This document shows positions 48,042-62,182 of a stretch of 64,000 bases of DNA, one piece after another (position 1 is the first letter of the stretch; each line of letters opens with the position of its first letter). The notes under the pieces were generated by a model that did no database searches, was not told where the DNA came from, and saw only the letters and a program-made list of their open reading frames with translations. A program made the translations under genes and the position numbers. Source of the stretch: Shinella zoogloeoides (GTDB lineage Bacteria > Pseudomonadota > Alphaproteobacteria > Rhizobiales > Rhizobiaceae); the NCBI RefSeq assembly GCF_003574625.1, contig NZ_QNUJ01000004.1, forward strand, positions 372,001-436,000. The letters run 5' to 3'.

Positions 48042-49715
48042 ATGTACCGTTACGACGAATTCGATCACGCCTTTGTCTCCGGCCGCGTGGAACAGTTCCG
48101 CGATCAGGTCGCACGCCGCCTTTCCGGCGAGCTGGCCGAGGATGCGTTCAAGCCGCTGCGCCTGATGAACGGCGTCTATCTCCAGCTTCACGCCTACATG
48201 CTGCGCGTCGCCATTCCCTACGGCACGCTGAATTCGCGCCAGATGCGCATGCTGGCCCATATCGCCCGCAAATATGACCGCGGCTACGGCCATTTCACCA
48301 CGCGCCAGAACATCCAGTACAACTGGCCGAAGCTTTCCGAGCTACCCGATGCGCTGGCCGAGCTCGCGACGGTCGAGATGCATGCGCTCCAGACCTCCGG
48401 CAACTGCATCCGCAACGTCACGGCCGATCATTTCGCAGGCGCCGCGGCCGACGAGGTCGCCGATCCGCGGCCCTATGCGGAGATCCTGCGCCAGTGGTCC
48501 TCCGTCCACCCGGAATTCTCCTTCCTGCCGCGCAAGTTCAAGATCGCCGTCACCGGCGCCGAGCGCGACCGTGCCGCCATCCAGGTGCATGACATCGGCC
48601 TGCACCTGAAGAAGAACGAGAAGGGCGAGATCGGCTTTGCCGTCTATGTCGGCGGCGGGCAGGGCCGCACGCCGCTGGTTGCCAAGAAGATCCGCGACTT
48701 CCTGCCGGAAGAGGACCTTCTGTCCTATACGACCGCGATCATGCGCGTTTACAACCTCCACGGCCGCCGCGACAACAAGTACAAGGCGCGCATCAAGATC
48801 CTCGTGCATGAGACGGGCGCGGAAGAACTGGCACGGCAGGTGGAAGTCGAGTTCGCCGAGCTCAAGGACAGCGAGCTGAAGCTGCCCGAGCAGGACGTTG
48901 CCGCCATCTCCGCCTATTTCGCGCCGCCGGAGCTCGCGCCCCGCGCCGAAGGTTGGGCAAGCCTTGCCCAATGGAAGAAGGCCGACCCGGACTTCGCCCG
49001 TTGGGTGCACCAGAACGTGCAGCCGCACAAGCATCCCGACTACGGCATGGTGACGATCTCGCTGAAGCCCATCGGCGGCATTCCGGGCGATGCGACCGAT
49101 GCGCAGATGGAGGCCGTCGCCGACATCGCCGCGGAATATGCCTTCGACGAGATCCGCGTCAGCCACGAGCAGAACCTCATCCTGCCGCATGTCGCGCTGG
49201 CCGATCTCGAAGCCGTCTATCGCGGCCTCGTCGCGGCCGGTCTCGCAACGGCCAATGCGGGCCTCATCACCGATATCATCGCCTGTCCGGGGCTGGACTA
49301 CTGCGCGCTGGCCAATGCCCGCTCGATCCCGGTCGCGCAGGAGATTTCCACCCGCTTCGGCGCGCCGGAGCGGCAGGCCGAGATCGGCGAGCTGAAGATC
49401 AAGATCTCCGGCTGCATCAATGCCTGCGGCCACCACCATGTCGGCCATATCGGCCTTCTGGGCGTGGAAAAGAAGGGCGAGGAGCTCTACCAGATCACGC
49501 TCGGCGGCTCGGGTGACGAGAACACGTCGATCGGCGAGATCATCGGCCGCGGCTTCGAGCCGGAGAAGGTGACGGATGCCATCGAGGTGATCGTCAATAC
49601 CTATCTCGGCCTTCGCCTCGATCCGTCTGAAATCTTCCTCGACGCCTACCGCCGCGTCGGACCGCAGCCTTTCAAGGATGCGCTCTACGGCGGCAAGACG
49701 GCCGAAGCGGCCTGA
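48042..49715 (+). CDS. cysI: Siroheme sulfite (or nitrite) reductase
   Basis: 557 aa. Two ferredoxin-like halves (TRQNIQYNWPKLSELPDALA and the later ISLKPIGGIPG region). The siroheme-[4Fe-4S] cysteines are in CPGLDYCALANARS and SGCINACGHHHVGHIG. It reduces sulfite to sulfide with six electrons. Context (cysG, DUF2849, DUF934, ferredoxin-NADP reductase) favours sulfite over nitrite. No separate CysJ flavoprotein is present; electrons probably come through ferredoxin. Confidence 0.93.
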   Translation: MYRYDEFDHAFVSGRVEQFRDQVARRLSGELAEDAFKPLRLMNGVYLQLHAYMLRVAIPYGTLNSRQMRMLAHIARKYDRGYGHFTTRQNIQYNWPKLSELPDALAELATVEMHALQTSGNCIRNVTADHFAGAAADEVADPRPYAEILRQWSSVHPEFSFLPRKFKIAVTGAERDRAAIQVHDIGLHLKKNEKGEIGFAVYVGGGQGRTPLVAKKIRDFLPEEDLLSYTTAIMRVYNLHGRRDNKYKARIKILVHETGAEELARQVEVEFAELKDSELKLPEQDVAAISAYFAPPELAPRAEGWASLAQWKKADPDFARWVHQNVQPHKHPDYGMVTISLKPIGGIPGDATDAQMEAVADIAAEYAFDEIRVSHEQNLILPHVALADLEAVYRGLVAAGLATANAGLITDIIACPGLDYCALANARSIPVAQEISTRFGAPERQAEIGELKIKISGCINACGHHHVGHIGLLGVEKKGEELYQITLGGSGDENTSIGEIIGRGFEPEKVTDAIEVIVNTYLGLRLDPSEIFLDAYRRVGPQPFKDALYGGKTAEAA

Positions 49716-49726
49716 GGAGGACGGTC

Positions 49727-50227
49727 ATGACGAAAATCTGGAACGAAGCCGGTTTCCTGGCGGACGATCCCTGGATCGTCGAAACGGAGGAGACCAAGGC
49801 CGGCTCGAACGAGAAGGCGATCCTCGGCCTCGACGCCTTCCTCGCGAAGGTCGCGGAGAGCGACGAGAAGGACCTCGGCGTGCTGATCAATCCGGCCGAC
49901 GACGTGCGCAGGCTGGAAGGGCATCAGGGCCGGCTGGCGCTGGTCGCGGTCGCGTTCCCGGCCTTCAGCGACGGGCGCGCCTTCAGCCATGCCTCGCTGC
50001 TGCGCTCGCGGCTCGGCTTCACGGGCGAGGTGAGGGCGGTCGGCGACGTGCTGATCGACCAGATCCCGCTGATGCTTCGCTGCGGCATCGACAGCTTTGC
50101 CGTCAGCAACGCGACGGCGCTGAAGCGGCTTGCGGAAAACCGCCTGCCGGGCATCGACAACCATTACCAGCCGGCCGCGCGCGCCTCGCAGGACGTCGGT
50201 TCCTACAGCTGGCGCCGCCGGGCCTGA
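49727..50227 (+). CDS. DUF934 protein of the sulfite-reduction operon
   Basis: 166 aa. Ends with GIDSFAVSNATALKRLAENR and LPGIDNHYQPAA, typical of DUF934. The family accompanies cysI and often cysH; here no cysH is between them. Function unproven. It starts 11 bases after cysI. Confidence 0.88.
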   Translation: MTKIWNEAGFLADDPWIVETEETKAGSNEKAILGLDAFLAKVAESDEKDLGVLINPADDVRRLEGHQGRLALVAVAFPAFSDGRAFSHASLLRSRLGFTGEVRAVGDVLIDQIPLMLRCGIDSFAVSNATALKRLAENRLPGIDNHYQPAARASQDVGSYSWRRRA

Positions 50228-50432
50228 CATCGGGGCCGGCGAATGGCCGTAATCGTGGTATAGTCTTGAGCAAGATCAAGGACAACGGCCGCGTGCCGCG
50301 CGAAAAGAGGCAGGCGGCAAACTATTGCGCGGCCAATCGGCGCATTGGAACGGAATACCTTCCTTTGCCGCTCAAGATGTAATATCTGCCTATCGTCAAT
50401 TTTTTCCGACGCAAGCCAGGATCGATCCCGAA

Positions 50433-51245
50433 ATGAACGCACCTGCCAAGACCGAAGAGTTCGTGCCCGCCATTCCCGCCGGCGTATTCGCCGAGACGGT
50501 GACGAGCGTGCAGCACTATACGGATCGCCTGTTCCGCTTCCGCATGACGCGCCCGGAAAGCTTCCGCTTCCGCTCCGGCGAATTCGCGATGATCGGCCTG
50601 ATGGTCGGCGACAAGCCGGTCTACCGCGCCTATTCCATCGCAAGCCCCGCCTGGGACGAGGAGCTGGAATTCTTCTCGATCAAGGTGCCGGACGGCCCGC
50701 TGACCTCTCATCTCCAGCAGATCAAGCCCGGCGACACCGTGCTGATGCGCAAGAAGCCGACCGGCACGCTCGTCCTCGACGCGCTGACGCCCGGCAAGCG
50801 GCTCTACATGTTCTCCACCGGCACCGGCATCGCGCCCTTCGCGAGCCTTATCCGCGACCCGGAGACCTACGAGAAGTTCGACGAGGTCATCCTAACGCAT
50901 ACCTGCCGCGAGGTCGCCGAGCTGAAATATGGCTTCGACCTCGTCGAGGAAATCCGCAACCACGAATTCCTCGCCGAAGTCGTCGGCGACAAGCTGCGCC
51001 ACTATGCGACGGTGACGCGCGAGGACTATCCGTTCCAGGGCCGCATCACGGACCTCATTTCCAACGGCAAGATGTTCGCCGATCTCGGCGTGCCGCGTTT
51101 CGATCCGGCGATCGACCGCGGCATGATCTGCGGCTCCGCCGCGATGCTGAAGGAAACCAAGGCGCTGCTGGAGCAGGCCGGCCTTACCGAGGGCGCCAAC
51201 AGCAAGCCCGCCGAATTCGTCATCGAGCGCGCCTTCGTCGACTGA
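50433..51245 (+). CDS. fpr: Ferredoxin-NADP+ reductase
   Basis: 270 aa, bacterial class. FAD site RAYSIASPAW; nucleotide site FSTGTGIAPFASLI; C-terminal FVIERAFVD, whose extended tail is typical of the rhizobial type. It likely supplies reduced ferredoxin or flavodoxin for the sulfite reductase upstream, and helps in oxidative stress. A strong terminator follows 20 bases after the stop. Confidence 0.93.
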   Translation: MNAPAKTEEFVPAIPAGVFAETVTSVQHYTDRLFRFRMTRPESFRFRSGEFAMIGLMVGDKPVYRAYSIASPAWDEELEFFSIKVPDGPLTSHLQQIKPGDTVLMRKKPTGTLVLDALTPGKRLYMFSTGTGIAPFASLIRDPETYEKFDEVILTHTCREVAELKYGFDLVEEIRNHEFLAEVVGDKLRHYATVTREDYPFQGRITDLISNGKMFADLGVPRFDPAIDRGMICGSAAMLKETKALLEQAGLTEGANSKPAEFVIERAFVD

Positions 51246-51996: not shown

Positions 51997-52310
51997 CGAG
52001 CGTTGCGGCGATGGGTTGGCGCGAGGCCCGGAAGTATCCGGGTAGAGGCGGGATTCGCCTGTCGTCCAGACCTCTCCGGGCGCGAGATGGCTTGCCGCTG
52101 GCTTAAAGGAAAACCGGCCAAGTCCATTTCTATGTGCCTTGTTCCGTTGTCATATTAGGTTTTCCCCAGCCGTTTCGCGGAGCAGCCCGAAAGCCCCCGA
52201 ATAAAGCCGCCGGCCCGCCCGTCGATAGGAGGATTGCGGTTGACGAATGTCATGGGCCTTGCCAGCATGCCCGCCACTCGGACCGTCCAGTTGCATTGTG
52301 GGGGCATAGG

Positions 52311-53570
52311 TTGACTGCGGGTTCCATCATCGCGACGATCCTGATCGTTCTCGCCGGCCTTCTCGCCGTGCCGGCCGTCAGCCATACCAATGCGGGCACC
52401 ACCTTCTCCCTGATGGCTTCCTCCATGGCCTTCGTCGCCATGGGCATCGCGCAGTTCATGGCGACGCGTCCGCCCTTCATCGAGAAGCTCTTCGGCGGCC
52501 TCGACCGCATCTACCAGTTCCACCGCAAGATCGGCATCGCGGTGCTCTGTCTTATCCTCGTGCACTATTTCGTGGCGCCGGATTTCCAGGGGCTCTCGCT
52601 GACGGGTGATCTCAACAAGCTCGCCAAGACGGCGGGCGAGTGGGCTTTCTACGGTTTCGTCTTCCTGCTCGTCCTCTCCATCGTGAAGGTCGTTCCAAAG
52701 ACGCGCTTCCAGATTCCCTACCAGTACTGGCGCTTCACGCACCGGTTCATCGGCCTGCTCTTCGTGCTCGTCGCCTTCCACCAGATGTTCATCAAACGCC
52801 CCTATGACGGCACGGCGCTGCTGGCGACCTATCTCAACCTCTTCGCCCTTCTCGGCGTCGTCAGCTATGCCTATACGCAATTGCTGCCCTGGCTCCGCAC
52901 GCGGAGATACGAGGTGGTCGACGTCGACCGCCACGACGGCGCGACGATCATCACGGCGCGGCCGACCGGCGGCAAGCTTCGGGCCTTGCCCGGCCAGTTC
53001 GGCTTCTTCCGGGTCAACAAGTCCGGCCTTCGCGAGCCGCATCCCTTCACCATCGCCGGCATCGAGGACGACGGTACCGTCCGCTTCGCTATCAAGCCGC
53101 TCGGCGATTATACCAAGGCGCTGCGGGAAGCTGTGGCGGTGGGGGATCCGCTGACGCTGGAGGGCGGATACGGCCATTTCAACCACAGGCGCGGCGGCAA
53201 GAAGCAGATCTGGCTTGCCGGCGGCATCGGCGTCACGCCGTTCCTCGCCATGGCGAGCCGGCTGAAGGGCGACGAGGGGCAGGACATCCACATGGTCTAC
53301 TGCGTGCGCGACGGCGCCGAAGCCATCGGCGTCGACACCTTCAGGGCGCAGGCGGAAAAGCTCGGCAATTTCAGCTTCGTGCTGCACAACTCGACGACCG
53401 ACGGCCGCTTCGACGCTTCCAAGCTCGTCGCCGGCACCAGCATGGACCCGGCGGAGGCGGACCTCTGGTTCTGCGGCCCGCCGCCCCTGCGCATGGCCAT
53501 CGAGAAGGGATTGAGGGAACTCGGTAAGCCGCCGCGCCGCGTCGAGTTCGAACGTTTCGAATTCCGTTGA
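52311..53570 (+). CDS. NOX/ferric-reductase-type transmembrane flavocytochrome
   Basis: About 419 aa. The membrane part has five to six helices and two histidine pairs: H71-x13-H85 (YQFHRKIG ... LVHYF) and H144-x12-H157 (RFTHRFIG ... VAFHQ). These are the spacings that hold two haems b in NADPH oxidases. The cytoplasmic part has the FAD site EPHPFTIAG, the NAD(P) site LAGGIGVTPFLAMA and WFCGPPPLRMAI. It moves electrons from cytoplasmic NAD(P)H across the inner membrane. No ATG fits; TTG at 52311 (or 52296) is used. The next gene, a periplasmic cytochrome, is 47 bases on. Confidence 0.85.
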   Translation: MTAGSIIATILIVLAGLLAVPAVSHTNAGTTFSLMASSMAFVAMGIAQFMATRPPFIEKLFGGLDRIYQFHRKIGIAVLCLILVHYFVAPDFQGLSLTGDLNKLAKTAGEWAFYGFVFLLVLSIVKVVPKTRFQIPYQYWRFTHRFIGLLFVLVAFHQMFIKRPYDGTALLATYLNLFALLGVVSYAYTQLLPWLRTRRYEVVDVDRHDGATIITARPTGGKLRALPGQFGFFRVNKSGLREPHPFTIAGIEDDGTVRFAIKPLGDYTKALREAVAVGDPLTLEGGYGHFNHRRGGKKQIWLAGGIGVTPFLAMASRLKGDEGQDIHMVYCVRDGAEAIGVDTFRAQAEKLGNFSFVLHNSTTDGRFDASKLVAGTSMDPAEADLWFCGPPPLRMAIEKGLRELGKPPRRVEFERFEFR

Positions 53571-53617
53571 GGATTTCCAGCCGGCGAGCCGGCATTCTGG
53601 AGCGAAGGGAACAAGCC

Positions 53618-56600
53618 ATGCGCGTGTTCAGCAAGTCATTCATCCGGCCCGGCGCGCGGCTTGCCGCGGCGCTCGGCCTTGCCGTGGCGGTTCTCTGTCC
53701 GACCGGGGCCTTCGCCATCGACCAGTTCGCGCCGGATGCCTACGGCAGCTACCAGGCGAATGTCGAGAACGGCAAGATCATGTTCAGCGCCGCTGGCTGC
53801 GGCGCCTGCCACGGCTCTGGCGACAATACCGGGCTGCTTTCCGGCGGCATGGAGATGCAGACGGCGATCGGCAAGTTCTTCGCGCCGAACATCTCCGCCC
53901 ATCCGAACGGCATCGGCGGCTGGTCGAATGCGGATTTCCTCAACGCCGTGATGGTCGGCCTCAAGAAGGACGGCGACAACCTCTATCCAGTCATGCCCTA
54001 CACTTCCTATGGCGGCATGAAGCCGGAGGACGTCCTCGATATCAAGGCCTATATTGAGACGCTGCCGCAATCGGACGCCGCCTCGAAGGAACACGAGATC
54101 GCCTTCCCCTTCAGCCGCCAGACGACGATCACGCTCTGGAAGCGCAGCCATTTCGTCGTGCAGGCCTACCAGAAGCGCGAAGAGACGCAGATGGAACGCG
54201 GCCGCTACCTCGTCGAGAATGTCGGCGGCTGCGGCGATTGCCATACGCCGCGCACGACCACCTATGGCCTCGACCTCGCCCGCGCCTACGAGGGCGAGAA
54301 AGGCCTGACCGGCGCCGTCGCGCCGGATATCACCAAGGCGCGCATGGCCGGCCTGGCCTCCCATGAGGTCTTCACCAAGGGGTTGATCGGGGAGGGCAAG
54401 AAGCTCTCGGGCTCGCCGCTTTCCGATCCGGTCATGCGCCGCATCGCCGAGGGCCTTTCCATCCTTTCCGATGAGGACAAGCAGGCGATGTACGCCTTCC
54501 TCGCCGACCGCGAGGTCAAGGTGACGCCGGTCGAGACGAGCCCGACGCCGGTGTGCAGCGAGGCGACGGCGGAAAGCGCGCTCGGCGCCGGTGGTGGCAG
54601 CACGGAATTCGCATCGGCGGCCGATGCCTTCATCGGCAAATATTGCCGCAACTGCCACGGGCCGGGCGAAAGCTCGCAGGGCTCGTTCCCCTCGGGCGAG
54701 CTGGGCTCGATTGCCGCGAACCCGGCCTTCGTCACACCCGGCGACGCCTCCAAGTCCCTGCTTTATACCAGCGTCACCAGCGGCCGCATGCCGCTCGGCA
54801 AGCGTCCCTCGGATGCCGAGGTACAGGGCCTTGCCGACTGGATCAATTCGCTGAACAAGTCGGCGATCCCCACCGCGGTTTCGGCGACGAAGACCGAGCG
54901 CTCCCGACCGATGCTGAAATATCTCGATTTCGTCGATCTGGCGTTGCGCGACATTTCCAAGGTGGATGCGCACGACCAGCCGTTCATGCGTTATTTCAGC
55001 TATCGCGACCAGTATAACGGCATGATGAGCTGTGAGACGCACGAGACCTTCCTCAAGCGCATGAAGGTGCTCGCCGGCGGCTTCAAGAAGCTCCTCAATT
55101 CGCTGTCCTACGGGCCGGAACTCGTCGTTCCCGAGGAGGTGGAAGGCTCCGACGGCCTTCTGGTGCGTATCGACCTGCGGGATCTCGAATGGAGCCAGGA
55201 AGACTACGATTTCCTGGTCAACGAATATTTCTACGGCGTCGATCCGGCCAGCAACGCCTCGCTGCAGGCGCTGGCCAAGGCGACGGAAACGCAGCTTCCC
55301 ATCATGCGGATAGACTGGTTCATGAGCAACGGCGCGCGGCCGAAGGTCTATAACCGCCTCATGAAGTTGCCGACCAACATCATCGAGCTGGAGCAGCGCT
55401 TCGGCGTCAACGTCGCGCAGAACATCGAGCGCCGCCGCGTCGTCCGCGCCGGCTTCGCCGACGGCTCGTCGGGGGTTTCCGACCATAACCGCATGCTGGA
55501 GCGGCACGACATGCCTTTCGGCGGCTATTACTGGAAATCCTACGATTTTGCCGGCGACGTCGGCCGGCAGGTACTCAAGCGTTTCCCGGCCGGTCCGGAC
55601 GGTATCAGCCTGAAAGCCGGCCTGCTGCCCTTCGAGCACGATGGCGGTGAAATGATCTTCTCGCTGCCGAACGGCATGCAGGGATATTACCTGTCGACCA
55701 ACAAGGGCGACCAGCTCGATGTCGGCCCGGCGAAGATCGTGTCCTTCCGCAAGCGGCCGATCGGCAAGGGCGTCGAGATCATCAATGCCCGCTCGTGCTT
55801 CGATTGCCATTTCGACGGTATCCTGTCGAAGCGCGACCAGTTGCGCGAGCATATCGAGACCTCCACGCTGTTCTCCAAGGACCAGCAGGACGAGCTGCTT
55901 GCCCTTTATGTGCCGCAGGAGGAGCTGAACGAGGCCTACAAGCGCGATACCGATCGCTTTGTCTCGGCGCTCGACCGCCTCGGCATCACCGAGGCGACGG
56001 CCGGCGGCGGCAAGACCAGCCTTAAGGCGCCCGGCGGGGCGGAGATCTTCACCTACTTCGCCGACAAGTACGAGGACGAGCTGAACTTCGAGCAGCTTGC
56101 CGCCGAGTTCGACATGACGCCCGAGCAGTTCGCCTCCGACATCCGCCGTCTGACGGATGCCGGCGCGCTGCGCATCGGCCTCGACTGGGTCGCGACGCTG
56201 GAGGCGGGGGCCACCGTTCCGCGCGTCGAGCTGGAGGAGCAATATGCCTTCATGCTTCAGCCGCTTCTGCAGCTCGAACCGCTGAAGCGCGGCGTCAACC
56301 ACGATGCGGTCGCCGTCGATACTGCCACCCACCAGCAGCCGGAGCAGGCAACCGGCGACGATCAGTATCAGGCGGCGACGAACACCGCCCACGCCGTTCC
56401 GGCCTACAAGCAGGACGACAAGGCGCAGGCTGACAAGGTGAAGCTTGCCCTGCATGTGCCGTCGACGAGCGCGAAGGTCGGGGATTACCTGAGCTTCGAG
56501 CTCAGCACGAACCACGACTGCGAGCTCCAGGTGGTCTATGTGGAGGATACCGGCAATGTCGAGATCATCCCGGACGAGATGATCGGCGACACGATGCTGC

Positions 56601-56860
56601 ATCCCGGCGAGCGGCGTGTCATTCCGCAATCCGGCAGCGGCAACCTGACCTTCGATTCGCCGTCGCCCGGCGAGACGATGATCGCCGTTTGCAAGATCGG
56701 CGGCCTCGGCGACCAGAAGCTTACGGCGGAAAAGGCCAAGCAGATCGTCGCGGGCTCCAGGCAGCCGACCACGCGCGGCCTTGCCATCAACCTTGCCAGG
56801 CAGGCCGAACAGGACAACGGTGCGAGCGGCCTGCAGATGGTGACGTTCGAAATCCAATGA
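53618..56860 (+). CDS. Periplasmic tetrahaem c-type cytochrome with C-terminal DUF4384-like domain
   Basis: 1080 aa with a signal peptide (cleavage about residue 33, after CPTGAFA). Haem-binding CxxCH motifs: CGACH (61-65), CGDCH (205-209), CRNCH (343-347) and CFDCH (727-731). The first two belong to a dihaem unit like the cytochrome subunits of membrane dehydrogenases; the third is a separate cytochrome domain. Residues 400-900 are not recognised. The last 150 (VGDYLSFELSTNHDCELQVV, then IIPDE) look like DUF4384, shared with both caspases downstream. It likely takes electrons from the NOX-like protein; this is inference. Confidence 0.85.
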   Translation: MRVFSKSFIRPGARLAAALGLAVAVLCPTGAFAIDQFAPDAYGSYQANVENGKIMFSAAGCGACHGSGDNTGLLSGGMEMQTAIGKFFAPNISAHPNGIGGWSNADFLNAVMVGLKKDGDNLYPVMPYTSYGGMKPEDVLDIKAYIETLPQSDAASKEHEIAFPFSRQTTITLWKRSHFVVQAYQKREETQMERGRYLVENVGGCGDCHTPRTTTYGLDLARAYEGEKGLTGAVAPDITKARMAGLASHEVFTKGLIGEGKKLSGSPLSDPVMRRIAEGLSILSDEDKQAMYAFLADREVKVTPVETSPTPVCSEATAESALGAGGGSTEFASAADAFIGKYCRNCHGPGESSQGSFPSGELGSIAANPAFVTPGDASKSLLYTSVTSGRMPLGKRPSDAEVQGLADWINSLNKSAIPTAVSATKTERSRPMLKYLDFVDLALRDISKVDAHDQPFMRYFSYRDQYNGMMSCETHETFLKRMKVLAGGFKKLLNSLSYGPELVVPEEVEGSDGLLVRIDLRDLEWSQEDYDFLVNEYFYGVDPASNASLQALAKATETQLPIMRIDWFMSNGARPKVYNRLMKLPTNIIELEQRFGVNVAQNIERRRVVRAGFADGSSGVSDHNRMLERHDMPFGGYYWKSYDFAGDVGRQVLKRFPAGPDGISLKAGLLPFEHDGGEMIFSLPNGMQGYYLSTNKGDQLDVGPAKIVSFRKRPIGKGVEIINARSCFDCHFDGILSKRDQLREHIETSTLFSKDQQDELLALYVPQEELNEAYKRDTDRFVSALDRLGITEATAGGGKTSLKAPGGAEIFTYFADKYEDELNFEQLAAEFDMTPEQFASDIRRLTDAGALRIGLDWVATLEAGATVPRVELEEQYAFMLQPLLQLEPLKRGVNHDAVAVDTATHQQPEQATGDDQYQAATNTAHAVPAYKQDDKAQADKVKLALHVPSTSAKVGDYLSFELSTNHDCELQVVYVEDTGNVEIIPDEMIGDTMLHPGERRVIPQSGSGNLTFDSPSPGETMIAVCKIGGLGDQKLTAEKAKQIVAGSRQPTTRGLAINLARQAEQDNGASGLQMVTFEIQ

Positions 56861-56867
56861 TAGCAAG

Positions 56868-56891
56868 GGCAGGGGCCTTCCGGCCCCTGCC
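56868..56891 (+). terminator. Strong hairpin between cytochrome and OmpA-like genes
   Basis: GGCAGGGGCC (56868-56877) pairs perfectly with GGCCCCTGCC (56882-56891) over a TTCC loop. No T run follows, so it may only slow transcription or set an RNA processing point between the two halves of the cluster. Confidence 0.5.
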
Positions 56892-56929
56892 TGCCGATTC
56901 GACGAGGACATGAGGGGACTGGACGGACC

Positions 56930-57913
56930 ATGCTGATGCGATACCGGGAGCATTTTTGCATTTCTTCGGCGCGCCAAGGCGGTCCTGCCCCCGATCTCGC
57001 GAGGGCACCGTTGCGGGCCTTCATCGCGATCGCGCTTGCGACGGCCGCTTTCGTCCTCGCGGACACGGCGCCGGCATCAGCGTCCTGCGAGGCGTTCAAC
57101 GGCGTCGTCGACGCCTTCAACGCCGGTGACGAGCAGAAGGCGTTTGCCGCCGCAGAGACGGCGGGCACGGCCAATTGCAGCGCCAACGAGCGCACGCTCG
57201 TCGGCCGCGTCGCCGCGCTGACCGCCTTCAACCGCATCGCCGCCGATGTCGGCAATGGCGGCAAGCTTGCCGATCACCGACAGGTGCTGGAGGAACTGAA
57301 GGAGAAATATGGCGGTCCCTGGCAGGTCTATGACGCGCTCGGCGACCTTGCCCGCGAGCGCAAGGATTACGAGGAGGCCGCGCGGCTCTACCAGATCGCG
57401 CTGGAGGATGGCTCCAACAAGACGCTGACGCCGGACTGGATGGCGCCCGACGAGGCGTACATCCTGCGCCTCGACCGGCTTGCCGGCGAAATGCGCCTTG
57501 CCGCCCCGCGCCCGGTCAAGCTCTCCATGCGCGGCGGCTGCAAGATCGCGTTCCGCGGGGTCACGATCAAGAAGAAGTCGACGCCGGTGCGCTACGTGTT
57601 CGGCACGGCGGATTTCACGCCGGAGGGCGTCGAGGCGGCGAAGGACCTCGCCGAATGCCTGAAGGCCGTGAAGCCGTCCGCCATCAAGCTCATCGGCCAC
57701 ACCGATCCGGTCGGCACCGCCGAGGCCAATTACAAGCTTTCGCTGGCGCGCGCCGAAACGCTGAAGACCTACCTTTACGACGCCGGTTATGCGGGCACGA
57801 TCACCACCATCGGCAAGGGCGAGGACGAGCCCTTCAAGCCGGACGATGCCAGCGCCTATGACACGGAGACGCTGAACCAGCTGCACCGCCGGGTCGAGGT
57901 GGATCTCGAATGA
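56930..57913 (+). CDS. OmpA-domain envelope protein
   Basis: 327 aa. A cytoplasmic-like extension of about 28 residues precedes a signal sequence (RAFIAIALATAAFVLADTAP, then ASAS). A helical, TPR-like part (YDALGDLARERKDYEEAARL) follows. The last 110 residues are an OmpA C-terminal domain: VRYVFGTADFTPEGVEAAKD, IKLIGHTDPVGTAEANYKLS, LARAETLKTYL. That domain binds peptidoglycan, so the protein probably anchors the system to the wall. The start may be one of several; the stop overlaps the caspase start (ATGA). Confidence 0.8.
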   Translation: MLMRYREHFCISSARQGGPAPDLARAPLRAFIAIALATAAFVLADTAPASASCEAFNGVVDAFNAGDEQKAFAAAETAGTANCSANERTLVGRVAALTAFNRIAADVGNGGKLADHRQVLEELKEKYGGPWQVYDALGDLARERKDYEEAARLYQIALEDGSNKTLTPDWMAPDEAYILRLDRLAGEMRLAAPRPVKLSMRGGCKIAFRGVTIKKKSTPVRYVFGTADFTPEGVEAAKDLAECLKAVKPSAIKLIGHTDPVGTAEANYKLSLARAETLKTYLYDAGYAGTITTIGKGEDEPFKPDDASAYDTETLNQLHRRVEVDLE

Positions 57914-59463
57914 GGGCGCTGCTGCCGCGCCTCCTGGCGCTTTCCCTCACCGCCGCCTTTCCGGGCGCCGCCCTCGCGGCGCAGACCTACGGGCTCGTCG
58001 TCGGCGTCGACCAGTATCCGAACGATGTCAGCCTCGACGGCGCGGTGCGCGACGCGGAGGACGTCTACCGCTCGATGAGCACCGCGGGCTTCAAGGTCGT
58101 GAAATTCACCAATGCCGAGGCGCGCAAGGACGATATCCGCAAGGCCTGGACGGATATGGTGGCCGAGGCGGCGGCGGGCGACACGATCATCTTCACCTAT
58201 GCCGGCCACGGCGCGCAGATGCCGGAACTCATCGCCGGCGACGAGGCGGACGGGCTCGACGAATTCCTCCAGCTTCCGGGCTTCGACCGCAACCGCTACG
58301 AGGAGACCTCCAGGGAGATCATCGTTGACAACGAGATGAACGCCTGGTTCGCGGAGGCGGAGGGCAAGGGCGTGCATGTGCTCTTCGTCTCCGACAGCTG
58401 CTTTTCCGGCGGCATGAGCCGGTCCATCAAGGGCAAGTCGCGCCTTGCGCCCGCCGTGAAGGTCAAGCTCGCCGCGCCCTCGCAGGAGGCGATCGACGGC
58501 GCCAATCTCAAGGAAATCGACTTCAAGCAGGTGACGGTGCTCGCCGCATCGCTGGAGAGCCAGCCGACGCCGGAGGTCATCATCGACGGCGAACCGCGCG
58601 GCGCGCTGAGCTGGAGCTTCGCCCGCGCGGTGGAGGGCAGCGCCGACCGCAACGGCGACGGCATCATCACCCGCATCGAACTGGAGGACTATGTCTTCTC
58701 CAATGTGAAGAACCGCTCGGAAGCGCTGCAGGTGCCGAATTTCACGCCGCAGGTGGCGCGCTCGGAGAGCGAGGTCGTCGTGCGCCTCACGCGCGGCCTT
58801 CCCGGTAATGGCGAGGCCGCCGGCGACAATGCGACGTCGCACGCCTTCAAACCGGCGCAGGAACTCGGCTGGACCGGCAAGATCGCCCTTGAGATCGACG
58901 GCGATGCCGAAAAGCCGGAGAACACGGACGGCACGGGCACGCCCTTCCGCTGGGATGTCACCAATGGCGTCTTCTATACGCCGAACGGCGATGTCGCCGC
59001 GGAAAATATCGGTCCGGACCGCATCCAGGCGGTGGTCGACAAGTTCGTGCTGCTCGATTTCCTGAAGGCCATGGCCAGCCAGAATCCCGGATCGGTCTCC
59101 CTGAGGCCGACGCGGGATATCTATGCCGCCGGTGATCGCCTGCGCTTCGACGCCCCGGCCGGGCGCTATCCCAACATGCTGGTCTTCAATCTTGCCAATA
59201 CGGGCGAGGTGCAGTTCCTCGACATGCAGGCGGCGGGAACGGCGAGTTCCGAGTTCAAGCTGACCGATGTCGAGGTGGTCAAGCCCTTCGGCGCCGATCA
59301 CCTGATCACGATCTGGACCGCCGAGCCGGTGGACGCCATCGGCGCGGTGCTCGCCGACCGCAATGTGACCGCCGCCGCCTTGCTCCAGGCCCTGATGACG
59401 CGCCTCGACGGCAAGGAGGCGAGCGTCGCCATCCAACCCCTTTACACGCGGGAAGCGCTATGA
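57910..59463 (+). CDS. Secreted caspase-family peptidase (orthocaspase) with DUF4384-like domain, first copy
   Basis: 517 aa. The signal peptide ends at ALAA (residue 24). The p20-like domain starts TYGLVVGVDQYPNDVSLDGA. The catalytic dyad is His100 (FTYAGHGAQ) and Cys164 (SDSCFSGG), both present, with the acidic DEADGLDEF loop between. From about residue 395 (SVSLRPTRDIYAAGDRLRFD) comes a DUF4384-like domain. Orthocaspases usually cut after Arg or Lys. No immunoglobulin, TPR or NACHT part is attached. Start and stop overlap the neighbours by 4 bases. Confidence 0.88.
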   Translation: MRALLPRLLALSLTAAFPGAALAAQTYGLVVGVDQYPNDVSLDGAVRDAEDVYRSMSTAGFKVVKFTNAEARKDDIRKAWTDMVAEAAAGDTIIFTYAGHGAQMPELIAGDEADGLDEFLQLPGFDRNRYEETSREIIVDNEMNAWFAEAEGKGVHVLFVSDSCFSGGMSRSIKGKSRLAPAVKVKLAAPSQEAIDGANLKEIDFKQVTVLAASLESQPTPEVIIDGEPRGALSWSFARAVEGSADRNGDGIITRIELEDYVFSNVKNRSEALQVPNFTPQVARSESEVVVRLTRGLPGNGEAAGDNATSHAFKPAQELGWTGKIALEIDGDAEKPENTDGTGTPFRWDVTNGVFYTPNGDVAAENIGPDRIQAVVDKFVLLDFLKAMASQNPGSVSLRPTRDIYAAGDRLRFDAPAGRYPNMLVFNLANTGEVQFLDMQAAGTASSEFKLTDVEVVKPFGADHLITIWTAEPVDAIGAVLADRNVTAAALLQALMTRLDGKEASVAIQPLYTREAL

Positions 59464-61007
59464 TGATCCGGTATGCCGCAGCCCTTCTGCTTTCGCTCGG
59501 TCTTGGCTCCATGGCCTCCGCCGCCGACCGCGCGCTGATCGTCGGCATCGGCACCTATGCCAACCTGCCGGAAAAGATGTTCCTCGAAGGACCGAAGAAC
59601 GACGCGCCGCTGATCGAGACGCTGCTGAAGGAAAAGCTCGGCTATCCGGCCGAATCGATCCGCGTCCTGCGGGACCAGGATGCCAGCCGGGCCGCGATCC
59701 TCGCCAGCATCGACGACTGGCTGGTCAACGGCACGCAGCCGGGGGACCGGGTCTATTTCTACTTTTCGGGCCATGGCCTGCAGGTGAAGGACGTGAGCGG
59801 CGACGAGGAGGACGGGCTCGACGAGGCGCTTTCCACCTATGACATCGCCGCCGGCGACGGCGACTGGACCAATGTGATTCTCGACGACGAGATCGACGCG
59901 ATGCTGGCGAAGCTCAAGGATCGCGCCGTCACCATCGTCATCGATGCCTGCCACTCCGGCACCATCTCCCGCTCGCTCTCGACGGAGGTCGCCGAGGCGA
60001 TGGAAAGCGCGCGCTTCCTGCCTCGCCCCCATGCAAAGCCAGGCGAGGCGGTGAAGACGCGCGGCCTGCGCATCGATGTCGCCGTGGTCGACAAGCCGGA
60101 GATCGCCAGGCAGAATGGCGTGGAGGCGTGGAGCGCCGCCTCGTCCTATCAGGTCGCCTGGGACGATACGCGCCTGCCGCCGGAGGAGCGGCACGGCGTC
60201 TTCACGCTCTCCTATGTCAACGGCCACGAGACCGCCGCCGCTGACAGCAATGGCAACGGCATCGTCTCCAATGCCGAATTGCTGGAATATGTGAAGAAGC
60301 AGTCGCAGTCCTATTGCGCCGCGCAGTCGGAATGCCAGGGCCTCGATCCGCAGTTGGAAGTGAATTACGCGCTGCTCGGCGCCAGCGCCGTCGCGCCGGC
60401 AGATGCTGGCGGGCAGGCGCAGCAGGCAGGCGGCGAGACCGCGCAGCAGCCGACGCCCGATTACGGCAAGGTCGAGGAGGTGAAGGTCGAGAACACCCAG
60501 CAGACGGCCTATGTCGCCGCCGACCCGGTCGAGGCCGTCGGCGATATCCTCGGCAAGGCCGAGACCGGCGACGTCAAGGTGGCGCTTTCCTCGGACTATC
60601 TGAAGACCGGCGATGCCTTCCGCATCACGGTGACGAGCGCCACGAGCGGGCACCTTATCCTCTACGACGTCGACAAGGACGGCAAGGCGACGCAGATCTT
60701 CCCCAACGAGGCGGCCCGCAAGATCACGCCGCTGACCGCCAACATGCCGCTCACCATTCCCGACGACTATTACGGCTTCGATTTCGAGGCCGACGGACCG
60801 AGCGAAAACGTCCTGGTCGCCATCGTCATCGCCGACGACGTCGACCTCACCAAGGTCGCCCCGAACGACTATGGCCTGACGAAGGAACTCGACGCCCGCA
60901 CCACCATCGCCGATATAGCGGGCACGCTGAAGCAGACCTGGACGCGCGACACGGAGAACCGCAGCGTGAACTGGTCGCTGGGACTGCTGAAATACGCGGT
61001 TCACTGA
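59460..61007 (+). CDS. Secreted caspase-family peptidase (orthocaspase) with DUF4384-like domain, second copy
   Basis: 515 aa. Signal peptide MMIRYAAALLLSLGLGSMAS then AA. The peptidase domain starts DRALIVGIGTYANLPEKMFL. Dyad His105 (YFSGHGLQ) and Cys164 (DACHSGTIS) are intact. An alanine/glutamine-rich linker (about 315-340) leads to the DUF4384-like domain (VKVALSSDYLKTGDAFRITV, then TSATSGHLILYDV). It is clearly diverged from the first copy, so the pair is old or the two were acquired separately. Last gene of the cluster. Confidence 0.88.
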   Translation: MMIRYAAALLLSLGLGSMASAADRALIVGIGTYANLPEKMFLEGPKNDAPLIETLLKEKLGYPAESIRVLRDQDASRAAILASIDDWLVNGTQPGDRVYFYFSGHGLQVKDVSGDEEDGLDEALSTYDIAAGDGDWTNVILDDEIDAMLAKLKDRAVTIVIDACHSGTISRSLSTEVAEAMESARFLPRPHAKPGEAVKTRGLRIDVAVVDKPEIARQNGVEAWSAASSYQVAWDDTRLPPEERHGVFTLSYVNGHETAAADSNGNGIVSNAELLEYVKKQSQSYCAAQSECQGLDPQLEVNYALLGASAVAPADAGGQAQQAGGETAQQPTPDYGKVEEVKVENTQQTAYVAADPVEAVGDILGKAETGDVKVALSSDYLKTGDAFRITVTSATSGHLILYDVDKDGKATQIFPNEAARKITPLTANMPLTIPDDYYGFDFEADGPSENVLVAIVIADDVDLTKVAPNDYGLTKELDARTTIADIAGTLKQTWTRDTENRSVNWSLGLLKYAVH

Positions 61008-61153: not shown

Positions 61154-61229
61154 GAGCGCGTAGCTCAGCCGGTAGAGCAACTGACTTTTAATCAGTAGGT
61201 CCAGGGTTCGAATCCCTGCGCGCTCACCA
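61154..61229 (+). tRNA. tRNA-Lys (TTT anticodon)
   Basis: Full cloverleaf: acceptor GAGCGCG/CGCGCTC, D-arm GCTC/GAGC, anticodon arm ACTGA-CTTTTAA-TCAGT, T-arm CAGGG-TTCGAAT-CCCTG, discriminator A and encoded CCA at 61227-61229. Confidence 0.97.
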
Positions 61230-61432
61230 CAAGCTTCCTTGTTTGCGGTGGTCTGATTCTCACACCTGCTTTGCTCCTTCCCGACGTCGCCGCTCGCACA
61301 CGACATATCGCCGCGTTCTCCAAAAGGTGATTGGCAGGAGCGGGGTGCGGCGGCTATCAGAGGCCAAACGGAGATGCGGGCGGGCCGGTTGCGGGCTGGA
61401 GCCGCTTTCTCCGGCCGTCGTGGAGTAGCCCC
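61230..61432. other. Spacer between tRNA-Lys and ccdA
   Basis: No gene or clear regulatory structure seen. tRNA ends are common integration sites, but no integrase or repeat of the tRNA 3' end is visible here. Confidence 0.5.
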
Positions 61433-62182
61433 TTGTCGATTGCCGATATTTCCCTTCTGAGCGCGCTTCTTGCCGGAGCGCTGTCCTTCCTGTCGCCCTG
61501 CGTGCTGCCGCTTGTGCCGCCCTATCTGTGCTATATGGCGGGCATTTCGGTGGATCAGTTCCGCGGCAGCGAGGCGGTCGCGGTGCGGCGCGATACGCGG
61601 GGCGCTGTGCTGCTGGCGGCCTTCTTCTTCACGCTGGGCTTTGCGACGGTGTTCGTCGCGCTCGGCGCCGGGGCCTCGACGATCGGCATGGTGCTGCGCA
61701 AGCATCTCGACGTGCTCGCCCAGATCGGCGGCGTCATCATCATCCTGATGGGCCTGCATTTCCTCAGCGTGCTGCGAATCGGGCTCTTTGCCCGCGAGGC
61801 GCGCTTCCAGGGCGGTGGCAAGCCGGCGACCGCCTCCGGCGCCTATATCATGGGCCTTGCCTTCGCCTTCGGATGGACGCCCTGCATCGGTCCGGTGCTG
61901 GGGGCGATCCTCGGAATCGCCGCGGCGCGCGAGACCGTCGGCGACGGTGCGGTGCTGCTGGCCGTCTATTCGCTCGGCCTTGCCATTCCGTTCTGGATCG
62001 CGGCCGGCTTTTCCGGCGCCTTCATGCGCTTCCTCGTGCGCTTCCGCCGCCATCTCGGCACGGTGGAGAAGGTCATGGGAGGGTTGCTGATCCTCACCGG
62101 CCTAGCCTTCATCTTCGGCTATGTCAGCGCCGTTGCGATCTGGTTCCAGCAAACGTTTCCCATTCTCTCGCAAATCGGCTAG
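61433..62182 (+). CDS. ccdA: Cytochrome c biogenesis protein CcdA
   Basis: About 249 aa with six membrane helices. The redox cysteines lie in LSFLSPCVLPLVPPYLCYMA and FGWTPCIGPVLGAILG. CcdA carries reducing power to periplasmic thioredoxins that keep apocytochrome c haem sites reduced. The start is a TTG at 61433 preceded by GGAG; no ATG fits. Having it close to a multihaem cytochrome gene is suggestive, but the tRNA between them argues against one operon. Confidence 0.9.
   Translation: MSIADISLLSALLAGALSFLSPCVLPLVPPYLCYMAGISVDQFRGSEAVAVRRDTRGAVLLAAFFFTLGFATVFVALGAGASTIGMVLRKHLDVLAQIGGVIIILMGLHFLSVLRIGLFAREARFQGGGKPATASGAYIMGLAFAFGWTPCIGPVLGAILGIAAARETVGDGAVLLAVYSLGLAIPFWIAAGFSGAFMRFLVRFRRHLGTVEKVMGGLLILTGLAFIFGYVSAVAIWFQQTFPILSQIG

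What the first reader, a model, noticed from the sequence alone, without database searches (positions are those of the whole stretch)
52311..61007. Envelope gene set joining a NOX-type flavocytochrome, a tetrahaem cytochrome, an OmpA anchor and two caspases
Five genes in one direction encode a complete electron path (NAD(P)H, FAD, two haems b, then four haems c in the periplasm) followed by a peptidoglycan-binding protein and two secreted orthocaspases with intact His-Cys dyads. The last three genes are coupled by ATGA overlaps. The cytochrome and both caspases appear to end in the same DUF4384-type domain. I know of no described system with this content. A possible reading is redox-gated proteolysis in the periplasm, for stress signalling, envelope quality control or self-killing. 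Only the gene content and motifs are seen; the function is inference.
Basis: partly seen in the sequence, partly recalled or inferred. Interest (0 to 1): 0.88.

Follow-up and report, generated by a model that had tools for sequence, protein, structure and literature searches.

The report
Redox-wired cell-wall protease gene module
A soil bacterium carries a conserved set of genes that joins an electron wire across the inner membrane to an envelope anchor and secreted caspase-type proteases; related bacteria keep the same set, and a sister version swaps the caspases for a trypsin-like protease, which suggests a real but uncharacterised envelope system.

Summary
Five same-strand genes (52311-61007) of a Shinella-like genome encode a SpNOX-type flavocytochrome, a tetrahaem cytochrome, an OmpA-family protein and two secreted caspase-family proteases. 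All 37 named loci found with the last gene hold all five, in the same order, three with interrupted frames. With cytochrome or NOX as bait the link persists: in 199 family genomes, the 18 with a NOX of at least 44% identity (cut-off chosen afterwards) are exactly the 18 with the long cytochrome, adjacent each time. Of 24 more distant scorable loci, 13 of 13 with a tetrahaem cytochrome have NOX and caspases; of 11 with a dihaem relative none has NOX or caspase and 10 have a trypsin-like protease. All 29 caspase dyads and 11 trypsin triads checked are intact. An upstream element has ECF26 promoter geometry. The middle domain of the cytochrome matches no Pfam, NCBIfam or PDB family. Redox-gated proteolysis is compatible but unproven: the conserved unit is cytochrome core + OmpA + active protease, and the NOX wire accompanies only the cysteine-protease version. 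My searches of an open-access library found no described counterpart.

The parts
52199..52222 (+). Conserved upstream element GAATAAA-N14-CGT, geometry of ECF26-type sigma promoters
   Evidence: Present with spacer 14 in 36 of 37 upstream regions; S. meliloti ECF26 consensus -35 GGAATA / -10 GT, and the SMc01022 promoter reads GAATAAA-N14-CGTC (PMC6180224, passages)
52240..52268 (+). Second conserved element TTGACGAA with hexamer CAGCAT, sigma-70-like -35/-10 candidate, 41 bp downstream of the first
   Evidence: TTGACGAA in 37 of 37 upstream regions; distance 41 in 35 and 40 in 1 of 36; the combination occurs once in the genome
52311..53570 (+). NOX-type flavocytochrome b (ferric-reductase domain, FAD and NAD(P)H domains; bis-His haem pairs H71/H85, H144/H157)
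   Evidence: Pfam; best PDB match 8qt6 E 1.2e-39; meets the sequence motifs of the published bacterial NOX filter (PMC5676040)
53618..56860 (+). Tetrahaem c-type cytochrome: N-terminal three-haem part like the fructose dehydrogenase cytochrome subunit, middle core with the fourth haem (no known family), C-terminal DUF4384-like domain
56930..57913 (+). Secreted OmpA-family protein (predicted peptidoglycan binding) with weak TPR signal
   Evidence: Pfam OmpA 44.5 bits (cut-off 27.2); conserved Asp/Arg/Asn in 24 of 24 module OmpA domains
57910..59463 (+). Secreted caspase-family protease 1 (H100/C164; C164 its only cysteine), EF-hand-like loop DRNGDGIITRIE at residue 246
59460..61007 (+). Secreted caspase-family protease 2 (H105/C164), EF-hand-like loop DSNGNGIVSNAE at residue 262, C-terminal DUF4384

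Best explanation
The five genes are one operon for a periplasmic, envelope-anchored protease module with its own electron supply. Shown by sequence: NAD(P)H/FAD/two-haem-b NOX, tetrahaem cytochrome, OmpA-family protein, two catalytically intact secreted caspases, all conserved together. Inferred: NOX passes electrons from cytosolic NAD(P)H to the N-terminal haems of the cytochrome and on to its core haem; OmpA and the Ig-like DUF4384 domains hold cytochrome and proteases together at the peptidoglycan; the redox state of the core (oxidised when an oxidant such as O2, peroxide or another acceptor drains it) decides whether the proteases act on envelope proteins. The conserved minimum is core + OmpA + protease. 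The NOX and the two extra haems are an add-on found with cysteine proteases, where steady reductant would keep the catalytic thiol usable in an oxidising compartment. Expression is probably driven by an ECF26-type sigma factor.
For: Gene set conserved in 37 of 37 close loci. NOX and long cytochrome co-occur and adjoin in 18 of 18 genomes that have either in the close form, of 199 searched; five of the seven more distant NOX copies were fetched and have no cytochrome core, OmpA or caspase within the 15-17 kb taken. Tetrahaem with NOX and caspase 13 of 13, dihaem with trypsin-type protease 10 of 11. Intact catalytic residues in 29 of 29 caspase and 11 of 11 trypsin domains. SH3_3 or PG_binding_1 domains over cut-off in 8 of 18 caspases of other loci scanned with Pfam, and SH3_3 in one of two trypsin-type proteases scanned. 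The catalytic cysteine is the only one in caspase 1; 29 of 38 sequences have exactly one. SpNOX reduces cytochrome c partly directly, also under argon (PMC5676040, passages). ECF26-like element in 36 of 37 upstream regions.
Against: No biochemical evidence for contact between cytochrome and protease. The two window caspases themselves carry no known wall-binding domain; their anchoring is inferred from OmpA and from relatives. The trypsin branch shows that the core does not need a thiol protease. The haem-number/protease switch is a single split in the tree, so the correlation may be inheritance only. The core fold is unknown: its model is poor (mean pLDDT 46) and gives no fold match at E 0.001 or better. 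The link of the three C-terminal domains is weak by profile comparison.
Confidence: 0.4

Rival explanations
1. The cytochrome core is itself an enzyme (a peroxidase- or MauG-like haem enzyme, fed by NOX in one branch) that detoxifies or oxidatively modifies something in the periplasm, and the proteases clear or mature its products.
For: Two c haems (third and fourth) plus a large core with many invariant charged and aromatic residues in both forms; dedicated electron supply in one branch.
Against: No sequence match to a peroxidase or MauG family in Pfam, NCBIfam or PDB; several proteases per locus are more than a maturation step needs (five caspases in L049).
Confidence: 0.25
2. Self-killing or conflict system: damage or invasion shifts the redox state, the proteases destroy envelope proteins and the cell lyses or halts.
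For: Patchy spread (core in 19 of 199 family genomes; 15 of 248 genomes of a second family); plasmid copy in Neorhizobium; caspase and trypsin replace each other in known conflict systems (PMC7159879, passages).
Against: The parts look extracytoplasmic apart from the NOX; no NTPase or toxin partner among the five genes; the same upstream neighbours in 26 of 37 close loci point to a stable place; the PADLOC scan gives only the generic caspase model for the proteases and weak ZorB/MotB hits for OmpA.
Confidence: 0.15
3. Two functions that merely share an operon: an electron-export or ferric/oxygen reduction chain (NOX + cytochrome) and an OmpA-protease envelope maintenance pair.
For: OmpA with metacaspases in 14 operons is reported in a paper whose text never mentions a cytochrome (PMC3501461); gaps of 47 and 69 bp precede the overlapping trio.
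Against: The cytochrome core keeps OmpA (11 of 11) and a protease (10 of 11) even where NOX is absent; gene order differs in distant loci yet the parts stay together.
Confidence: 0.15

Closest known systems
Bacterial NOX, SpNOX of Streptococcus pneumoniae (PMC5676040)
   Same: FAD and NADPH motifs and four haem-ligand histidines; best PDB match 8qt6 (that this entry is SpNOX is recalled)
   Different: Here it adjoins a dedicated multihaem cytochrome and secreted proteases
Metacaspase-OmpA operons (Asplund-Samuelsson 2012, PMC3501461)
   Same: Metacaspase and OmpA in one operon (14 reported); multi-metacaspase operons, Alphaproteobacteria among the groups
   Different: No cytochrome in the main text (0 occurrences; operon section read whole); its supplementary operon tables were not read, so single cases may lie there
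Caspase/trypsin effector exchange in vWA-MoxR-type conflict systems (Kaur 2020, PMC7159879)
   Same: Caspase and trypsin domains are mutually exclusive in one slot (passages)
   Different: NTP-dependent systems with NTPase partners; here secreted proteases with haem proteins and OmpA
Fructose/alcohol dehydrogenase cytochrome subunits (7w2j chain C)
   Same: Sequence of the first three haem domains, E 3e-35
   Different: NOX in place of the dehydrogenase; about 700 extra residues with a fourth haem and a DUF4384-like end
Alphaproteobacterial QC-dyad pseudo-orthocaspases with a trypsin-like domain and DUF4384 (PMC6426788)
   Same: Caspase-type domain, trypsin-like protease and DUF4384 again meet, there in single proteins (passages)
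   Different: There the caspase dyad is altered; here the dyads are intact and caspase and trypsin lie in separate versions of the module

Membership tests
Bacterial NOX (published motif filter) | FAD motif H(PSA)F[TS][LIMV] | tested here: met
   HPFTI in the protein; motif from PMC5676040
[quoted passage not shown]
   GIGVTP
Bacterial NOX (published motif filter) | Two His-X12/14-His pairs | tested here: met
   H71-X13-H85 and H144-X12-H157, each His the same in 97% of 38 sequences
Bacterial NOX (published motif filter) | 3 to 7 transmembrane helices by TMHMM | not tested
   no helix predictor was run; Pfam Ferric_reduct membrane domain over cut-off
Bacterial NOX (published motif filter) | Superoxide production from NAD(P)H | not testable with these tools
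   needs an assay
Orthocaspase | p20 domain with His-Cys dyad | tested here: met
   PF00656 over cut-off in both window proteins and in 18 of 18 caspases of other loci scanned; dyad 29 of 29
Orthocaspase | Cleavage after basic residues | not testable with these tools
   an Asp two before the Cys in 29 of 29 only fits it
DUF4384 in cytochrome, caspase 1 and caspase 2 | Pfam PF14326 over cut-off | tested here: inconclusive
   caspase 2 yes; cytochrome 24.8 of 27 bits; caspase 1 none; cytochrome relatives over cut-off in 2 of 6; caspase-1-type relatives over cut-off in 0 of 4
EACC1-type caspase conflict systems | NCBIfam NF047832 over cut-off | tested here: not met
   24.1 and 42.5 bits against 140
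Fructose/alcohol dehydrogenase complex | Adjacent dehydrogenase subunit | tested here: not met
   no such gene among the five window genes; a NOX stands next to the cytochrome

The most novel reading that the evidence does not exclude
A dedicated transmembrane reductant supply for secreted cysteine proteases: NOX and the extra haems exist to keep or switch the catalytic cysteine of envelope-bound caspases, so cytosolic NAD(P)H controls proteolysis outside the inner membrane. The sister version with a serine protease lacks the wire because it needs none. This would be a bacterial caspase system controlled by a NOX and a cytochrome c.
Probability: 0.2. Interest if true: 0.93.

Novelty: categorically new. 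Interest (0 to 1): 0.8.

Why it matters
What bacterial caspases do is an old open question. Here caspases sit in a stable, recurring set with an electron-transfer chain and an OmpA anchor, in culturable soil bacteria, with a natural control (the trypsin branch) that separates what the cytochrome core does from what the NOX does. The cytochrome core is also a conserved domain for which Pfam, NCBIfam and PDB searches gave no relative.

Tried and rejected
Rejected: chance neighbourhood (three baits give the same set); upstream GTG start of NOX (34 of 37 rows have a start codon at the place of 52311); a shared regulon of the upstream element in this genome (three other GAATAAAG-N12-14-CGT sites, against one match of the reversed control pattern; all three lie inside called open frames of other genes); tRNA-Lys as an insertion site (found beside the set in six of eight Shinella loci scanned and in L012, on either strand; absent from L001, L003 and from the eight Rhizobium, Pararhizobium, Ensifer and related loci scanned). 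Led nowhere: AlphaFold model of the cytochrome core (pLDDT mostly under 50 in the middle) and its Foldseek search (no match at E 0.001 or better); PDB profile search of the core (only the small third haem domain); Rfam (tRNA only); (six genomes, nothing new).

Weak points of my own method: the caspase profile was built from 12 sequences, five of them not trimmed to the domain because a text pattern failed, and it gave a second spurious hit in L038 and L041; caspase identity was therefore checked with Pfam in 20 proteins in all. Automatic start choice was wrong for caspase 2 in several Shinella loci, so Cys counts of whole caspase 2 proteins are not used. Of 25 distant loci, L045 (fragment) was left out of the count of 24; L040 was counted as tetrahaem although unread letters hide one motif. 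In L069 the OmpA lies 2.2 kb away on the other strand; in L080 the NOX lies 1.3 kb away on the other strand and no OmpA was found. L030 lacks the GAATAAA element. The close loci are related to one another, so counts such as 36 of 37 are not independent events. L037 was left out of the upstream comparison (contig end). The bait search reaches close relatives only. The 44% cut-off for NOX was set after seeing the list; the next copy has 43% (G060).
Full report
What is there. The window lies in a 5.4 Mb genome (G000) whose nearest named loci are Shinella. Five genes on the + strand run from 52311 to 61007. Gene 1 is a ferric-reductase/FAD/NAD(P)H protein; its best solved relative is 8qt6 (E 1.2e-39; that this entry is SpNOX is recalled, the listing calls it an FAD-binding FR-type protein). 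It meets the sequence motifs of the filter published for bacterial NOX (PMC5676040, passages read). Gene 2 has four CxxCH motifs. Its first three haem domains resemble the cytochrome subunit of fructose dehydrogenase (7w2j_C, E 3e-35). The middle core, which holds the fourth haem, matches nothing over cut-off in Pfam or NCBIfam, and the PDB search with its profile found only the small third haem domain. Gene 3 is an OmpA-family protein, and genes 4 and 5 are caspase-family proteases. Genes 2-5 begin with what read as signal peptides (my reading; no predictor was run).

Conservation near home. A search with caspase 2, which reaches close relatives only, returned 37 named loci in Shinella, Rhizobium, Pararhizobium, Ensifer and unnamed Rhizobiales. 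All 37 contain all five genes in the same order and strand; L018, L019 and L026 have one or more interrupted frames and L037 is cut by the contig end. At least one of the window's upstream neighbours (sulfite reductase, ferredoxin reductase, GntR) lies in the stretch in 26 of 37, the downstream DsbD-type gene in 7 of 37.

Conservation from other baits. In 199 genomes of the family, 18 hold the long cytochrome and one (G150) a short form. A NOX at E 1e-60 or better is in 23 genomes; the 18 with at least 44% identity (a cut-off set after seeing the list) are exactly the 18 with the long cytochrome, next to it on the same contig. Seven other NOX copies have 34-43% identity; five were fetched, and none has cytochrome core, OmpA or caspase within the 15-17 kb taken. 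With a profile of the core at E 1e-20, 3 of 398 genomes drawn over the phylum (own, G277, G528) and 2 of 385 over the class (own, G277) are positive, and 15 of 248 in the family of G277 at E 1e-15. One plasmid record, Neorhizobium petrolearium, has genes annotated caspase family, OmpA family, ferredoxin reductase family and c-type cytochrome in a row. So the module is patchy, and found in at least two families of the class.

Two architectures. I examined 25 loci outside the close set; one (L045) is a fragment. Of 24, 13 are tetrahaem and all 13 have NOX and one to five caspases; 12 of 13 have an OmpA gene in the stretch, one of them 2.2 kb off on the other strand. Eleven are dihaem; none has NOX or caspase, all 11 have OmpA, and 10 of 11 have a trypsin-like protease (the eleventh, L044, is a 5.8 kb contig). 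Tetrahaem and dihaem cores are two sides of one branch of the tree, support 100/100 (which warns of long branches), so the exchange is probably a single old event. Both forms occur in both families, the dihaem form in the window's family only as L044.

Active parts. The caspase His and Cys are present in 29 of 29 domains, the trypsin triad in 11 of 11, and the OmpA residues known (recalled) to bind diaminopimelate in 24 of 24. For comparison, Asplund-Samuelsson 2012 gives 75% intact dyads for Alphaproteobacteria (PMC3501461, passage). Of 18 caspases of other loci scanned with Pfam, 8 carry SH3_3 or PG_binding_1 over the cut-off, two LprI, two Sel1 and one a C-type lectin domain. Of two trypsin-type proteases scanned, one carries SH3_3 and one Sel1 repeats. 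This points to the cell wall or surface. The two window caspases carry none of these, so their place at the wall rests on the OmpA gene and on their relatives. Both hold an EF-hand-like loop (Pfam under its cut-off), so calcium control is possible.

C-terminal domain. DUF4384 is sure in caspase 2 and in two of six other cytochromes, likely in the window cytochrome, and only suggested in caspase 1. The end of the cytochrome is modelled with block pLDDT of about 70-90; the fold search of that model gave weak matches, many of them Ig-like or other sandwich domains, none at E 0.001 or better. The caspase 1 model matches metacaspases (7qp0, E 4e-7).

Control. Upstream of NOX, two short elements stand out of otherwise poorly aligned DNA: GAATAAA-N14-CGT in 36 of 37 regions and TTGACGAA in 37 of 37, 41 bp apart in 35 and 40 in one of the 36 that have both. 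In mononucleotide shuffles the first occurs 11 times in 11100. Its form fits ECF26 promoters of S. meliloti, whose targets include a cytochrome b-like protein, a sulfite oxidase and a serine protease (PMC6180224, passages). No other site in this genome has both elements. That an ECF26 factor drives the operon is an inference; the fixed distance could also mean an activator site for a sigma-70 promoter.

How it may work. Shown: content, conservation, intact catalytic and ligand residues. Inferred: electron flow NAD(P)H to FAD to haem b to haem c; assembly at the wall; redox control of proteolysis. The trypsin branch limits the idea of thiol gating: the core works with a serine protease too. But the NOX wire was found only with cysteine proteases, in line with a reductant supply for them. 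With one evolutionary switch this is a lead, not a test.

Novelty. Papers were searched over an open-access library only, and only the top of long lists was seen. None listed describes this set by title and abstract start. The tables behind that paper were not read.

Noticed in passing
window 61331-62182: A DsbD_TM/CcdA-type gene (Pfam 45.7 bits, cut-off 27.1; cytochrome c biogenesis, periplasmic reductant) lies just downstream, after tRNA-Lys 61154-61229. It was found in 7 of 37 close loci: six Shinella and L012.
   Followed up: partly
window 48042-51245: Sulfite/nitrite reductase, a DUF934 gene and a ferredoxin-reductase-like gene lie upstream; ECF26 factors RpoE1 and RpoE4 of S. meliloti answer to sulfite (title of PMC3511301, listing), so a link between sulfite stress and the operon is conceivable.
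   Followed up: no
L049 4565-6478: A caspase of the related module ends in a peptidoglycan-binding and a C-type lectin domain, both over cut-off.
   Followed up: partly
L069 5517-7007: A module caspase ends in a domain that Pfam names NAD glycohydrolase translocation F5/8 type C domain (85.5 bits, cut-off 27).
   Followed up: no
L050, L071-L079: Dihaem cytochrome, OmpA and trypsin-like protease form a second gene set in another family of the class (domains scanned in L050 and L077); I saw no description of it, but made no search aimed at it beyond.
   Followed up: partly
L018, L019, L026: Interrupted reading frames in NOX, OmpA or caspase 1 in three of 37 loci: decay or sequencing error.
   Followed up: no
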